A stretch of 64,000 nt of DNA from Promethearchaeota archaeon. GTDB taxonomy: Archaea > Asgardarchaeota > Lokiarchaeia > Sigyniarchaeales > SOKP01. The stretch is taken from positions 1-64,000 of the forward strand of contig JAFGOA010000187.1 of the NCBI GenBank assembly GCA_016926735.1. Direction: 5' to 3'. Every line of letters begins with the position of its first letter. Position 1 is the stretch's first letter. Made by a program: the position numbers and the translations under genes. Below, piece by piece: positions 10,678-42,079 of the stretch. A model generated the notes under the pieces. That model was not told the origin of the DNA and did no database searches. It worked only from the letters and a program-made list of their open reading frames with translations.

Positions 10678-12915
10678 CTAAACAAATAATCCTTCTTGTT
10701 TTTCATCTTTAATTTTTCTACGTTTTAGTTTAGTAGCAAATTCTTCATACCATTTCAAAATTTCTGGTGTTATTGCAGGATGTACTTCTTCTTTTGATTC
10801 TTTAAAATGTTCAATAGAGACTTTACGAGCTCTTACATTCTCCCTAAGTGCTGTCATAGCGGCTTCTCGACACCAAGTTTCTAAATCTGCTCCAGAAAAC
10901 CCTTCTGTCATCTCTACTAATTCTCTTAACTCTACATTCGTAGCTAATGGCATATCTTTACTAAAAATCCTTAAAATTTCTAATCTTTCATCCTTATTTG
11001 GAGGTGGAACAAATAAAATACGATCGATTCTTCCAGGTCTAATTAAGGCAGGATCCAGAATATCTGGTCTATTTGTAGCAGCTATTACTACTATATCTTT
11101 CATAACCTCAAGCCCATCTAATTCTGTTAAAAATTGCGATAATACTTTTTCAGTTACTCCTGAATCAGATGTATATCGTCCTCTGGTTGGAGCAATGGAA
11201 TCAAATTCATCAAAAAATATAATACATGGAGCCGCCATTTTTGCTTTTCTAAATACTTCTCGAATTGCTTTTTCACTTTCTCCAACCCATTTCGATAATA
11301 ATTCTGGTCCTTTTATTGAAATAAAATTTGCTTTACTTTCAGTAGCAATTGCTCTAGCTAATAAGGTTTTACCGCAGCCTGGAGGACCATATAATAGAAC
11401 TCCCTTAGGAGGATCAATTCCCATACGTTTAAAGATATTAGGGTGAGATAATGGCCAATCTACAGCTTCTAATAATTTTTGTTTTAGGTCTTCTAATCCT
11501 CCAACACGAGACCAGTTTACATTTGGTATTTCAACAAACACCTCTCTAATCCCTGAAGGAAGTACTTCTTTAAGAGCTTGTTCGAAATCCTCTCTTGTTA
11601 CTTGAATTTGTTCTAAGAGTTCTGGATCGATAATTTCAGATTCTAAATCTATACTTGGTAAATATCTTCTTAAAGCGGACATCGCAGCTTCCCTGCACAC
11701 AGCAGAAATATCTGCTCCTACAAATCCATGTGTGATTTGTGAAAAGTCTTTTATTAATAATATTTTATTGTCAAGTGGCATATTTCTGGTGTGAATTTGA
11801 AAGATCTCTCTTCTTCCTTTTTCATTTGGAACTTTAATTTCAATTTCTCTATCAAATCTTCCTGGTCTTCTTAAAGCAGAATCTAAGCTATTAGGCCTAT
11901 TTGTAGCTCCAATAACTATAACTCTTCCACGACTATGTAATCCATCCATTAATGCTAATAATTGAGCAACAACTCTTCTTTCTACTTCTCCTGTAACTGT
12001 CTCTCTTTTAGGTGCTATAGCATCGATTTCATCAATAAATATTATAGATGGGCTTTTTTCTTCTGCTTCTATAAATATTTTTCTTAATTTCTTTTCTGAT
12101 TCCCCATAAAATTTGCTCATTATTTCTGGACCATTTATAGAAATAAAATTAGCTTCACTTTCATTTGCAACAACTCTTGCGAGTAGTGTTTTACCGCATC
12201 CTGGTGGACCACGTAGCAAGACACCCTTTGGTGGATCAATTCCTAAGCGCTTAAATAATGATGGATGTCTGAGTGGTAACTCTACCATTTCTCGAACTCT
12301 TTGTATTTCACGATCTAATCCTCCTACATCTTCATAAGTGATATAACTTGCACTTTTTTCTTCCTCCTCAGTTATATGTTCACTAATACTAAGGGTTGTC
12401 TCTTGTTTTATAATACATACTCCTTTAGGTCTAAGATTAATAACCTTGAATGTTATTTCTCTACTAATTCCAATAGAAATTAAAATAATATCATCTAAAG
12501 TTACTGGGTAATTGCTGAGTTTTCTTTTAACAAATGTTTCAAATCGAGGATTACTTCTTATTCTTACACTTGCAGGGGCTAATACCACATTCTGGGCAAT
12601 TATTGCTTCTACTTTCTGTATTTCTACAGTATCATCTATACTTGTTCCAGTATTTTTTCTTAAACGAGAATCTACTCGAACAATTCCTAAACCATTATCT
12701 TGTGGATAACTAGGCCAAGCAATACCTGCACTTTCTTTTTTACCTCTAAGGGCGATAACATCACCTGTCTGAATATTTAATTCTTCCATTGTTTTTGGAT
12801 CTATTCTTATGATATTCCGTCCTATATCTCTTTTCTTCGCTTTTTGAATTCGAAGAGTTACTTTTGGAAGCTCCTCGTTATCTTTCTTATTATCTTTACT
12901 ATCAGAACTAGTCAT
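10678..12915 (-). CDS. cdc48: Cdc48/p97-type AAA ATPase
   Basis: Predicted hexameric unfoldase that extracts or remodels ubiquitin-like-tagged or damaged proteins, often feeding the proteasome. The 745 residues show an N domain (about 15-200), D1 with GPPGCGKT near 237 and a DEID Walker B near 294, then D2 with GPPGCGKT near 512 and DEFD near 570. Both second regions of homology (ATNRP) are present. D1 and D2 are each complete, so both rings should hydrolyse ATP. A PAN-type proteasomal ATPase is also encoded in the window (43793-44908). A 9-bp hairpin lies about 90 bp upstream of its start. Confidence 0.97.
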
Positions 12916-13000
12916 AAAAATTCTATTTATAGAAATATTTCTTTATAATTATTTAAAAACAATATTTTTGTAAAAATTTTTGTATTTTAATATAAAAATC

Positions 13001-13025
13001 AACCATCATTAAAATTATGATGGTT
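13001..13025. terminator. Intergenic 9-bp perfect hairpin
   Basis: AACCATCAT (13001-13009) and ATGATGGTT (13017-13025) pair perfectly around a 7-nt loop. The hairpin is 131 bp after the fen1 stop and 86 bp before the cdc48 start, both on the minus strand. It could end the fen1 message or sit in the cdc48 leader. No long U-tract follows directly on the minus strand. Confidence 0.4.
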
Positions 13026-13155
13026 CTATAAATTGAAAGATAAAACCTATTTTAAAATCTATTTTTATCTTTATTTAATTTAATTCTATTAATTATTGAC
13101 AATTAATAATTTTTAACTTATTTTTTATAAAATTAAATCACTAAAATTATTTAAT

Positions 13156-14205
13156 TTAATGAAAAAATGAATCTAAAGATACTTGTTTTGATTTATCATC
13201 AAATTTCTTCAATCTTTCTAATGCATTTTCTATTCTATTTTTAGAAAAATTATGTTGTTCAATCAGTAATTCTTCTATTTTATCATATAAAATTTTTTCC
13301 CATTTTAAAGCTGGATAATCTTTATTGATTTTTGGATATAGAAATATCTTTTTTACTTGGTCTATTAATTCAAGGTTTAAATTCTCTTTATTTTTAAGGA
13401 TTACGTCCTTATTATTAAGGATATTCTCCAATGAATTATATTTTTTGATTAATTCTAGAGCTTTGTGTTGTCCAATTCCTTTTATACCTGGAAAAAAGTC
13501 ATTCCCTATTAAAATTCCCATTTCAATCATTTGCTCTTTTGAAATACCAAAATGTTCTAAAACTTTTATAAGTGAGATATATTCGATATCTAAGGAAATT
13601 GTAGTATTTTTTATTTTCTTACTTCGACTAACTGCGAAATTTCGTAATAATCTTTTTCCACCAAATAAAAGAGTATCATAATCTTGGGAAGCACACGCCC
13701 AAGCATCACCATTTTGCACCATATATGCAGATTGAGCTTCTCCTTCTGATAATGCATCTATAATTGGAATTCCCATATATTTTATTAATTTTTTACTTTC
13801 TTCAATCATATTAGTATCTAATTTCGAGGTCATCTGAGCAAATTTTTTTGCTTCTCTCATATCCCCTTTTTCCTGTGCTTCGACCATTTTGATTTGAGCT
13901 TCTTTCTTTATTTTTCTCCGTTCTTCTATAGTTTCCATTTTTAATATTGATGGCTTTCCGTCAAATACATAAATAGGTTTGATATTATGTTCTAAGAAAT
14001 TGATAGATCTATAGAACAAGCCTGATAAATGAGAAGTTACATTTCCTTCAAAATCTTTTAGAGGAGTTCCATCTCTTTGTCTAATAATTGCTAAAAATTG
14101 ATATATTGTATTAAATGCGTCAATTGCTATTTTTTTATTCAAAAGATTTTCAAAAGTAATTTTTCTTTTTACATCCTTAACTAAATCATTTATTTTTACT
14201 CCCAT
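13156..14205 (-). CDS. fen: Flap endonuclease 1
   Basis: Structure-specific 5' flap nuclease that removes RNA primers during Okazaki fragment maturation and acts in repair. The N-terminal XPG region starts MGVKINDLV with the metal ligand Asp in IDAFN (about 29). IYVFDGKPS (about 78-86), EGEAQSAYM and ASQDYDTLLFG (about 171-181) are the XPG-I acidic residues, and GNDFFPGIKGIG (about 235) is the helix-hairpin-helix region. The extreme C-terminus QVSLDSFF is a canonical PIP box for PCNA. Length 349 is standard. It lies downstream of nob1-like and nadK genes on the same strand. Confidence 0.97.
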   Translation of the reverse strand: MGVKINDLVKDVKRKITFENLLNKKIAIDAFNTIYQFLAIIRQRDGTPLKDFEGNVTSHLSGLFYRSINFLEHNIKPIYVFDGKPSILKMETIEERRKIKKEAQIKMVEAQEKGDMREAKKFAQMTSKLDTNMIEESKKLIKYMGIPIIDALSEGEAQSAYMVQNGDAWACASQDYDTLLFGGKRLLRNFAVSRSKKIKNTTISLDIEYISLIKVLEHFGISKEQMIEMGILIGNDFFPGIKGIGQHKALELIKKYNSLENILNNKDVILKNKENLNLELIDQVKKIFLYPKINKDYPALKWEKILYDKIEELLIEQHNFSKNRIENALERLKKFDDKSKQVSLDSFFH

Positions 14206-38918: not shown

Positions 38919-41276
38919 TTATTCATTATTGTATTTAAATCGACTTATTTTATAGATCTCTTGAGCCAATTTTTTCCCAATATTCTCAGTTTTCATAAGT
39001 TCGCCAATATCTGCATTGAAAATATTCTGTATTGTTCGTATTTCTTTTAATAGGCTTTTAGCTCTTAATATATTAATTCCCGGAATACTAGAAACAACAT
39101 ATTCTAATAAATAAGCCATATCAGATGGAGCTTTTTCAAATCTCAATTTGATATTACCTTTTGATGTTGATTGTTCTTTTTTTACCAAATGATATAAGAA
39201 AGTTGTAGTTTCATTGACATCTTTGGTTTTATAAATTGTAACACCTATTTTAAGAATTATGGACGAAATTGCTCCAAATATTGCATTTTCATTTATTGTA
39301 GTGTTCTCTAAAGGATCTCCTTCTAAGACAAGAATTGCATTTTTGAAATTTTTTTTTAATTCAAAAAGCTCTTTAAATAATCTGCCATCTTTTATAGAAT
39401 CCGTAAAGTCTTGAGCACTTTTTCTTTCTATTCCTGTATTTTCAGAAATAATATAATCTGCTATTTCAAGTTGTTCCAACTTTATATTTAAATTCATAAG
39501 AGATAGATTTCTAACAACCGGAGATGCTGTCTCTCTAGTATCACAAATAATTGTATACATTTCTTTATTTTCAGTATCTTCAGAAATAAATTCTGTCTTA
39601 TTATGATTTATATTTCTGTTTTTAGGAATATTTTCTTTTTTTTTCTCTGATAAAAAACTCAAAAGGTCTTTTTGTTCCTTTTTCTGATTATTATTAATAT
39701 CTAGTTCTTTGATTTTTTTTAAATTATTATACATGTTTCTCTCTTTTTTTTTTTCTGCCCAATAATATCCTTCATCTCGAGTATTTTTCCCCATTAAAAT
39801 ATAAACTTTTCCTTCTTTCTTCCTTCCTGTCCGTCCTCTTCTTTGTATTGAGCGAATAGCACTAGGAACAACGTCGTAAAAAATGACCAAATCACATTCA
39901 GCTATATCTAAACCCTCTTCAGCTACACTTGTTCCTATGAGCGTGTTGTAAAAACCGTCTTTAAAATCTTTTAAGATATTTATTTGTTGCTTTTGTGTTA
40001 ATCCTTTATCAGTTCCTTTATTTGCTTGACCAATAAATTTATGAACTTTAATTACAGGATCATTTTTAAAAATTTTAACAATGTTATTTACAGAATCTCT
40101 ATAATGACAGAAAACTAATATTCGAGATTCTGGAATCTGTTTTATTTGTTTATGAATAAGGTCTTTTAGTTTATCAATTTTAGGGTGGACTAAACCTTCT
40201 GATTGAATTTTATTTGTTAAATTTATTGCATTTTGTATGCTTCTATCTAAGAATAATTCTTTGAGAGATTTATTAGCAGTATTTTTTTTCAACTTTTCAT
40301 TATTTTTTCCAAAATAATCTTTTAAAGCATTTATTCCTTGAGTTTCCAATAATTCGATCATATGTGATAATCTTATAGCATTAGCCTGCAATTTTTTTGC
40401 TTTAAATAATTGAAATTTTTCTCCCTCATCATAAGTAGAATTAATTTGACGGCTAATTTGATTATTCAGATCCAATAAATCTTTACGAGTTATTTTATTT
40501 ATATCCACGGAATTTATTAAATCAATATTTTTGAGGAATTTATATATAGATCTTAATTTATCAGTTAAAATCTTTAATATCTCCAAAAATTCTTCTGGAA
40601 GATCAACCTTAATCCACTCTTGTTCAATATTATGAATATATGGCTTAACATCCGCATCCTTTTCTGTTCGAATTTCAATATTTTCAATAAATAAGTTTTC
40701 TTTTATTTCATTAATTTTTTCCTCAGTTGTCCCTGGACTTGCTGTAATACCAAGGATCTGGGAATTTTTTGATATATCTATATATTTTTTTGCAATGAAG
40801 CAATAAGCATAATCTCCTACTGCTCGATGGCATTCATCAAATATAATTAAAGAAACATCTTTCAGAGAGTAGTTATTCGAAATTATATCATTTTGGAGTA
40901 CTTGCGGGGTCATAAAAGATATTTTAATATCCTTCCAAATTTCTCTACGTTCTTCTGGAGAAATAGATCCTGTTATTGATTTTAAAGAATTTAAGTCAAG
41001 GGTAGTCAATTTCTGAAATGATTCATAATGTTGATTTACAAGAGGTTTAGTAGGGGCGAGAAAAATAACTTTTGAATCCGGAAATTCTGCTAATCTATGA
41101 ACTGCAAGCATAAGTGCTATTATTGTTTTACCTAAACCTGTTGGAATTATAACTAAAGAGTTATGATTTAAGCAATTGATAAAAATGTTTTCTTGATATA
41201 ATCTTCTTATAACAAGATCTTTTTGTATTAATGGATGTGAAACATATGGATATTTATTTAAAGTCATACTATTCAA
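38919..41276 (-). CDS. hef: Hef/FANCM-type helicase-nuclease
   Basis: Processes stalled replication forks and branched DNA. The SF2 helicase has PTGLGKTIIA (about 46-55), DECHR (about 146-150), ITASPGT (about 176) and the box VI QRRGRTGRKKEG near 483. The XPF/ERCC4 nuclease motif IERKSAQDF lies near 614-622, with the upstream CDTRE near 580-584. A tandem helix-hairpin-helix ends the protein (about 715-785). At 785 residues all three domains are present, as in euryarchaeal Hef. Many archaea outside Euryarchaeota have only the XPF-like nuclease, so the fused form is notable. Confidence 0.95.
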   Translation of the reverse strand: MNSMTLNKYPYVSHPLIQKDLVIRRLYQENIFINCLNHNSLVIIPTGLGKTIIALMLAVHRLAEFPDSKVIFLAPTKPLVNQHYESFQKLTTLDLNSLKSITGSISPEERREIWKDIKISFMTPQVLQNDIISNNYSLKDVSLIIFDECHRAVGDYAYCFIAKKYIDISKNSQILGITASPGTTEEKINEIKENLFIENIEIRTEKDADVKPYIHNIEQEWIKVDLPEEFLEILKILTDKLRSIYKFLKNIDLINSVDINKITRKDLLDLNNQISRQINSTYDEGEKFQLFKAKKLQANAIRLSHMIELLETQGINALKDYFGKNNEKLKKNTANKSLKELFLDRSIQNAINLTNKIQSEGLVHPKIDKLKDLIHKQIKQIPESRILVFCHYRDSVNNIVKIFKNDPVIKVHKFIGQANKGTDKGLTQKQQINILKDFKDGFYNTLIGTSVAEEGLDIAECDLVIFYDVVPSAIRSIQRRGRTGRKKEGKVYILMGKNTRDEGYYWAEKKKERNMYNNLKKIKELDINNNQKKEQKDLLSFLSEKKKENIPKNRNINHNKTEFISEDTENKEMYTIICDTRETASPVVRNLSLMNLNIKLEQLEIADYIISENTGIERKSAQDFTDSIKDGRLFKELFELKKNFKNAILVLEGDPLENTTINENAIFGAISSIILKIGVTIYKTKDVNETTTFLYHLVKKEQSTSKGNIKLRFEKAPSDMAYLLEYVVSSIPGINILRAKSLLKEIRTIQNIFNADIGELMKTENIGKKLAQEIYKISRFKYNNE

Positions 41277-41512
41277 GATAAGAAATTATTATTAAATGGA
41301 ATATAGTTATTATACAGGATTAAAAACTATATAAAATATTAGAGTCCTATGGAACACTTAAATCAAATTAATATCTTTTTAATAAATTATTTTTATAATT
41401 TCAAAAAATATTATTTTTCTATCGAGGAAACCTTAAGGTAAAAGTTTATTTCAAATAGGCGATTCTAAATTAATAATATTAAGCGCGGATAGTTTAGCCC
41501 GGTTATAACGAC

Positions 41513-41545
41513 TTATTACTTTGGAGGACCATAGTAAAACGTTAA
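41513..41545 (+). other. tRNA-Val intron 1 (33 nt, anticodon stem, BHB)
   Basis: The central helix pairs AACG (41507-41510) with CGTT (41540-41543). The bulges are ACT (41511-41513) and AAA (41544-41546). Cutting after the second base of each gives the stated intron and joins AC to ACG to complete a perfect 5-bp anticodon stem (position 28/29). The intron folds on itself with TTACT/AGTAA and TGG/CCA around an AGGA loop. Confidence 0.88.
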
Positions 41546-41561
41546 ACGCTCACACCGTGTA

Positions 41562-41590
41562 AATAATTATTCTTTATTAATTATCACGAC
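41562..41590 (+). other. tRNA-Val intron 2 (29 nt, variable loop, BHB)
   Basis: The central helix CGTG (41556-41559) pairs with CACG (41585-41588). Bulges are TAA (41560-41562) and ACG (41589-41591), and the inner stem is ATAATTA/TAATTAT (41563-41569 with 41578-41584). Cutting after the second base of each bulge leaves variable loop AGGTC (position 44/45). This is a textbook strict bulge-helix-bulge. Confidence 0.9.
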
Positions 41591-41605
41591 GGTCGAGGGT
41601 TCAAC

Positions 41606-41635
41606 TTAGAAGTTCATCTCGAATTTCATTGGAAA
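41606..41635 (+). other. tRNA-Val intron 3 (about 30 nt, T loop)
   Basis: A 30-nt insert splits the T loop. The inner stem pairs GAAGTTC (41609-41615) with GAATTTC (41621-41627) around ATCTC. A 4-bp helix TTCA (41600-41603) with TGGA (41630-41633, one G-U pair) and bulges ACT/AAT predict the cut at 59/60 and a T loop TTCAACT. Cuts three bases earlier would give TTCAAAT, so boundaries are uncertain by up to 3 nt. Confidence 0.78.
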
Positions 41636-41776
41636 TCCCTCTCCGCGCATTATTTAATAACATATCAATCTAGAATGAACTTAACTTTAACTGATATATT
41701 CATTATTTTTAATAATAAAAATTAAATGAAATGTTATATTTCATAATATAACTACTCTTTCTAGGTATTATTAAAA

Positions 41777-42079
41777 GTGTCAAGTTTCTTAGAATCTCGA
41801 GAATTAAGAAAGAAATATAAAGAAGTAAGAGAATATGTAAAGATTGGTCCTATCTTCTTAACACGTTATGAAAAAGCCAGAATTGTTGGTGCAAGAGCAC
41901 TTCAAATTAGTTTTGGTGCACCAATTCTTGTTGAAAAACCAAATGATATGATTGATCCAATAAGAATCGCTCAATTAGAACTTAAGTCAGGAATTCTTCC
42001 TCTAACAATCAGAAGAGAAATGCCAAGTGAAGAATTTCAAGATGTTCCAATTAATAAATTAATACTAAAAAAGGATTAA
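41777..42079 (+). CDS. rpoK: DNA-directed RNA polymerase subunit K (Rpb6 homologue)
   Basis: Small RNA polymerase subunit that helps assemble the clamp and core. The 100-residue protein has the Rpb6/omega signature LTRYEKARIVGARALQIS (about 28-45), then GAPILV and DPIRIAQLELKSGILPLTIRRE near 58-79. Length is at the long end for archaeal RpoK because of an N-terminal charged extension and a C-terminal tail. GTG start. It follows the tRNA-Val gene by 127 bp on the same strand; no other polymerase genes are nearby. Confidence 0.93.
   Translation: MSSFLESRELRKKYKEVREYVKIGPIFLTRYEKARIVGARALQISFGAPILVEKPNDMIDPIRIAQLELKSGILPLTIRREMPSEEFQDVPINKLILKKD

What the first reader, a model, noticed from the sequence alone, without database searches (positions are those of the whole stretch)
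41483..41649. tRNA-Val(CAC) with three introns at different sites
Removing 33, 29 and about 30 nt gives a perfect 75-nt tRNA with fully paired acceptor, anticodon and T stems. Introns fall in the anticodon stem (28/29), the variable loop (44/45) and the T loop (about 59/60); none is at the canonical 37/38. Multiple noncanonical introns are known mainly from Thermoproteales. Standard tRNA finders may miss this gene, so the CAC valine tRNA could look absent in annotations.
Basis: partly seen in the sequence, partly recalled or inferred. Interest (0 to 1): 0.85.

Follow-up and report, generated by a model that had tools for sequence, protein, structure and literature searches.

The report
Three-intron valine tRNA in Lokiarchaeota
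This is a real valine transfer-RNA gene of an Asgard (Lokiarchaeota) archaeon that is cut up by three short introns. The same gene in close relatives carries zero, one, two or three introns in changing combinations, so it is a known kind of gene that gives an unusually clear record of tRNA introns coming and going.

Summary
Window 41483-41649 (+) encodes a 75-nt tRNA-Val(CAC) once introns of 33, 29 and 30 nt are removed at 28/29, 44/45 and 59/60. Each intron carries a bulge-helix-bulge (BHB) site: a 4-of-4 pair central helix between two 3-nt bulges, exactly at the splice points the mature tRNA demands. ARAGORN and Rfam find no tRNA here. The genome is a Lokiarchaeota MAG. The gene lies upstream of rpoK in most relatives examined. 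43 distinct versions splice to the same 72-75-nt tRNA, with 0 (5), 1 (13), 2 (12) or 3 (13) introns at four sites (28/29, 36/37, 44/45, T loop). At least 9, 7, 6 and 6 changes are needed on a tree. The genome encodes a two-subunit splicing endonuclease. RtcB is absent from this MAG but present in 70 of 77 genomes searched. No second Val(CAC) was found. T-loop introns are almost always 30 nt and recur in about ten other isoacceptors, suggesting spread between tRNA genes. The kind is known: Thermoproteales have up to three introns per tRNA, and Asgard multi-intron tRNAs were reported in 2024. Verdict: real, new member of a known kind. No transcript evidence was available.

The parts
41445..41452 (+). 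Promoter-like element (TTTATTTC; AAAAG just upstream) at -38 from tRNA position 1
   Evidence: A TTTAATTC/TTTATTTC-like match lies at exactly -38 in most of the 43 relatives; BRE/TATA role inferred
41483..41512 (+). Exon 1, tRNA positions 1-28
   Evidence: matches intronless orthologues
41513..41545 (+). Intron 1, site 28/29, 33 nt; central helix AACG:CGUU, bulges AC|U and AA|A
   Evidence: same site in 23 of 43 distinct orthologues
41546..41561 (+). Exon 2, positions 29-44, with anticodon CAC
   Evidence: only place in the genome matching ACGCTCACACCGTGT with up to 2 mismatches
41562..41590 (+). Intron 2, site 44/45, 29 nt; central helix CGUG:CACG, bulges UA|A and AC|G, 7-bp inner helix
   Evidence: same site in 21 of 43
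41591..41605 (+). Exon 3, positions 45-59
41606..41635 (+). Intron 3, site 59/60, 30 nt; central helix UUCA:UGGA (one U.G), bulges AC|U and AA|U
   Evidence: T-loop intron in 25 of 43, 23 of the 24 at 58/59 or 59/60 exactly 30 nt
41636..41649 (+). Exon 4, positions 60-73 (A73 discriminator; CCA not encoded)
41777..42079 (+). rpoK (RNA polymerase Rpb6/K), syntenic neighbour
   Evidence: Pfam PF01192; used to find orthologous loci
38919..41276 (-). Hef-like helicase/nuclease, divergent neighbour
   Evidence: DEAD, Helicase_C, ERCC4, HHH; used for the tree

Best explanation
The gene is transcribed as one precursor of about 170 nt. Each intron folds into its own local hairpin that presents a relaxed BHB site. 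Exon strands 23-26 (D stem plus 26), 39-42 (anticodon stem) and 54-57 (T loop) pair with the 3' ends of introns 1, 2 and 3. The two-subunit (alpha2beta2-like) splicing endonuclease cuts after the second nucleotide of each 3-nt bulge, and RtcB joins the exons. The three hairpins do not overlap, so all can form at once. The D and anticodon stems can form only after introns 1 and 2 are out, which makes splicing a precondition for the tRNA fold. The gene arose from an intron-free tRNA-Val(CAC) by repeated gain, loss and probably whole-gene swapping of introns within the Lokiarchaeota; the 30-nt T-loop intron is one of a set spread over many isoacceptors. Shown: exons, BHB sites, conservation with changes, and the endonuclease genes. 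Inferred: transcription, cleavage, ligation and route of gain.
For: Perfect spliced tRNA with 4 of 4 central helices at the three required points. Same-genus relative L034/L063 has the same three sites but changed intron sequences with helices kept. 43 distinct orthologues next to rpoK splice to one tRNA, five of them with no intron. Two-sided changes in BHB helices: AACG:CGUU to AACA:UGUU at 28/29 and GCUC:GAGU to GUUC:GAAU at 36/37. Conserved upstream element at -38. Two endonuclease genes; L031 aligns to the catalytic chain of solved enzymes with Y, H and K, and L032 lacks the His. RtcB in 70 of 77 genomes searched, including the same genus. T-loop introns of the same build in Lys(CTT) and Arg(CCT) of this genome and in about ten isoacceptors of relatives. 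No second Val(CAC).
Against: No RNA evidence. RNAfold's minimum-energy fold (-48.9 kcal/mol) does not contain all three BHB helices; that structure scores -32.6, although such programs handle 3-nt bulges poorly. Outer helices are weak or absent at sites 28/29 and 44/45, and 17 of 21 relatives have only 3 of 4 pairs at 44/45. RtcB was not found in this MAG itself, most likely a gap. Whole-gene swapping (L085 against L087) inflates the count of intron changes.
Confidence: 0.93

Rival explanations
1. Decaying pseudogene: the tRNA has been interrupted and is no longer made; another valine tRNA reads GUG.
For: tRNA-Val(TAC) genes exist in the assembly and could read GUG by wobble.
Against: All stems are intact, the BHB sites are perfect, the exons are conserved while introns drift, the neighbourhood and upstream element are conserved, and the same-genus relative keeps all of it.
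Confidence: 0.04
2. The insertions are something other than BHB introns (self-splicing introns, small mobile insertions, assembly errors).
For: They are inserts of similar size in an AT-rich MAG.
Against: 29-34 nt is far too short for group I or II introns. The BHB geometry is exact, and independent MAGs carry the same sites.
Confidence: 0.01
3. The different intron sets come mainly from exchange of whole tRNA-Val genes between lineages, not from gain or loss of single introns.
For: L085 and L087 are close sisters with the same upstream sequence but very different exons and introns; L036 has an unrelated tRNA-Val(CAC) at the same spot.
Against: Elsewhere sister groups differ by one intron with the other two sites shared (L095/L097/L105 against L099-L106 at 28/29).
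Confidence: 0.3

Closest known systems
Multi-intron tRNA genes of Thermoproteales, e.g. Pyrobaculum islandicum tRNA-Pro(UGG)
   Same: Three BHB introns in one tRNA gene, noncanonical sites, two-subunit endonuclease (PMC4090602, PMC4033280)
   Different: That tRNA-Pro has one intron at 37/38 besides 25/26 and 56/57; here all three are noncanonical (28/29, 44/45, 59/60), in an unrelated archaeal phylum
Asgard (Atabeyarchaeia, Freyarchaeia) tRNA introns, PMC11291895
   Same: Asgard phylum, noncanonical sites, over half of tRNA genes with multiple introns
   Different: Different class; the passages read there give no locus-by-locus comparison of intron sets
Lokiarchaeota tRNA-Sec with T-arm intron (cited in PMC5330540)
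   Same: Lokiarchaeota and T-arm intron
   Different: Different tRNA, single intron mentioned
Caldiarchaeum tRNA-Thr(GGU) locus heterogeneity, PMC3293823
   Same: One locus differs in intron number among close relatives (one or two introns, plus a fragment)
   Different: Two forms linked to a mobile element there; here 0-3 introns at four sites over about 40 genomes
[quoted passage not shown]
   Same: Similar introns in different tRNAs of one genome
   Different: Here a mostly 30-nt T-loop intron ending in GAAUAA that pairs with the universal GUUC of the T arm

Membership tests
Archaeal BHB intron-containing tRNA gene | Exons join to a complete cloverleaf tRNA | tested here: met
   75-nt tRNA-Val(CAC); intronless orthologues at the same locus
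Archaeal BHB intron-containing tRNA gene | 3-nt bulges and 4-bp central helix at each exon-intron junction | tested here: met
   4 of 4 pairs at all three sites; at most 1.6% at other offsets
Archaeal BHB intron-containing tRNA gene | Outer and inner helices flanking the bulges (strict hBHBh') | tested here: inconclusive
   Inner helices: intron 1 five of six pairs, intron 2 seven pairs, intron 3 a 7-bp helix set back by two mismatched positions. Outer helix full at 59/60, 2 bp at 44/45, none at 28/29: relaxed forms
Archaeal BHB intron-containing tRNA gene | tRNA splicing endonuclease able to cut relaxed BHB (alpha2beta2 type) | tested here: met
   Two PF01974 genes, one with Y/H/K, one without His; subunit assembly and activity not tested
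Archaeal BHB intron-containing tRNA gene | RtcB ligase in the lineage | tested here: met
   70 of 77 genomes searched, including the same genus; not found in this MAG
Archaeal BHB intron-containing tRNA gene | Spliced transcript in the cell | not testable with these tools
   No RNA data available
[quoted passage not shown]
   Sites are 28/29, 44/45 and 59/60
Group I or II self-splicing intron | Catalytic core of hundreds of nt | tested here: not met
   Introns of 29-33 nt; no Rfam match

The most novel reading that the evidence does not exclude
In Lokiarchaeota a uniform 30-nt T-loop intron, whose GAAUAA end pairs with the near-universal GUUC of the T arm and so fits any tRNA, has spread among isoacceptors by RNA-level transposition. 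With recurrent gain and loss at 28/29, 36/37 and 44/45 and swapping of whole tRNA alleles, this keeps intron number in flux between sister species outside the Thermoproteales.
Probability: 0.45. Interest if true: 0.55.

Novelty: new member of a known kind. Interest (0 to 1): 0.4.

Why it matters
The gene escapes two common tRNA searches, so valine CAC could look absent in annotations of this genome. More usefully, one syntenic locus in about 40 Lokiarchaeota genomes shows zero to three introns at four sites, with sister species differing. That makes the open question of how archaeal tRNA introns are gained and lost testable in the phylum nearest to eukaryotes.

Tried and rejected
RtcB seemed absent from the genome, which would have been remarkable; relatives including the same genus have it, so this is most likely a gap in the MAG. 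Bacterial contamination as the source of the intronless tRNA cluster on C157 was considered and judged unlikely: 26% GC like the host, tRNA-Tyr without a long variable arm, and the same array in the sister genome. RNAfold of the whole precursor did not recover all BHB sites and was not used as a test. The first genome-contig scan with the helicase protein found nothing; the rpoK alignment succeeded. A pairing of the D arm with the end of intron 1 in the minimum-energy fold was dropped because relatives with C at the matching D-arm position (GGTCTAG) cannot form it.

Full report
What was checked. Window 41483-41649 on the + strand holds a complete tRNA-Val(CAC) in four exons. Removing 33 nt at 28/29, 29 nt at 44/45 and 30 nt at 59/60 leaves a 75-nt tRNA with fully paired acceptor, anticodon and T stems, G18 G19, U33, the UUCAA T-loop motif and A73. 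ARAGORN finds no tRNA in the window. Rfam gives none at its gathering score and none even at E up to 5.

Splice sites. For each intron I asked whether the junctions fixed by the mature tRNA fit a bulge-helix-bulge site: two 3-nt bulges cut after their second base, separated by a 4-bp helix. All three do, with 4 of 4 pairs: AACG:CGUU, CGUG:CACG and UUCA:UGGA, the last with one U.G. At other offsets of the same introns 4 of 4 occurs in 0-1.6% of cases. This also settles the third intron at 59/60. Outer helices are strong only at 59/60, so the first two are relaxed sites of the kind handled by two-subunit endonucleases (PMC4090602, PMC4033280).

Organism. rpoK loci retrieved by name are Candidatus Lokiarchaeota, the nearest being MAG bin106. 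The genome is 3.88 Mb and 99% complete; the window is about 27% GC.

Relatives. tRNA-Val(CAC) lies upstream of rpoK in most family members. 43 distinct versions splice to a 72-75-nt tRNA with the same core. Intron sets: none 5; 28/29 only 9; 36/37 only 3; T loop only 1; two introns 12; three introns 13. The same-genus relative (L034/L063) has the same three sites with diverged intron sequences. On a tree of helicase plus rpoK (40 loci) at least 9, 7, 6 and 6 changes are needed at 28/29, 36/37, 44/45 and the T loop. Some changes are whole-gene swaps: sisters L085 and L087 share upstream sequence but not exons. Site 36/37 is assigned by its BHB; in most of these the sequence alone also allows 37/38. 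The T-loop introns of L049 (called 56/57) and L062 are weakly placed.

Covariation. At 28/29, 20 of 23 distinct introns keep all four pairs, with A-U, G-U and G-C alternatives and one two-sided change (G26-C to A26-U). At 36/37 all seven do, with one C-G to U-A change. At 44/45 only 4 of 21 do, the rest having 3 of 4.

Machinery. There are two endonuclease genes. L031 aligns to catalytic chains with the Y, H and K residues; L032 lacks the His. RtcB is missing in this MAG but present in 70 of 77 genomes searched, including the same genus. A TTTAATTC/TTTATTTC-like element sits at -38 in most loci.

Is there another Val(CAC)? None was found among 62 Rfam tRNA matches or with a valine-specific covariance model, and the anticodon arm occurs once, at up to two mismatches. 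A copy with an intron inside the arm or a very different arm would escape these searches. Val(TAC) genes exist in the assembly, so GUG could also be read by wobble.

Spread of introns. 23 of 24 T-loop introns at 58/59 or 59/60 are exactly 30 nt. Lys(CTT) and Arg(CCT) of this genome carry T-loop introns that are 29 of 33 identical over the aligned stretch (counted by eye). A pattern for the 30-nt form finds 33 places in 23 genomes against 2 for the reversed control, in Glu, Lys, Arg, Ser, His, Asn, Gly, Pro, Cys and other tRNAs (some ARAGORN anticodons there are doubtful because further introns remain). The pattern itself fixes length and GAAT, so only the valine set is unbiased evidence for a constant length.

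Known or new. Up to three introns per tRNA and intron transposition are established in Thermoproteales (PMC4090602, PMC4033280, PMC8450103, PMC3218864). Asgard Atabeyarchaeia and Freyarchaeia have introns in 92-95% of tRNA genes, over half with several (PMC11291895). The gene is therefore a new member of a known kind; the comparative series was not found in the papers searched.

Noticed in passing
G000:C157:7086-8393 and 12331-13605 (L147, L148); sister genome G001:C266: Two facing clusters of about 21 tRNA genes covering most amino acids, intronless except tRNA-Phe, in an otherwise intron-rich genome; part of the array is conserved at 72-79% in the same-genus relative. A second, nearly intron-free tRNA set of unknown origin.
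   Followed up: partly
G000:C42:7266-7742: Array of five class II tRNAs (Ser, Leu), all intronless, about 700 bases from a further tRNA-like match (ARAGORN: Asp with a large insertion).
   Followed up: no
G000:C8:2881-2923 and G000:C227:884-926: Nearly identical 30-nt T-loop introns in tRNA-Lys(CTT) and tRNA-Arg(CCT), suggesting intron transfer between tRNA genes.
   Followed up: yes
G000:C50:33312-33395 with flanks: tRNA-His(GTG) gene that appears to have at least two introns, one in the D arm.
   Followed up: no
L036, reverse complement, around 1280-1400: In one relative the rpoK locus holds an unrelated tRNA-Val(CAC) (GGGCCAAT...) with an intron near 26/27: a replacement at the same place.
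   Followed up: no
window 41445-41452: Upstream element at exactly -38 of the tRNA in most relatives, a probable archaeal TATA box.
   Followed up: partly
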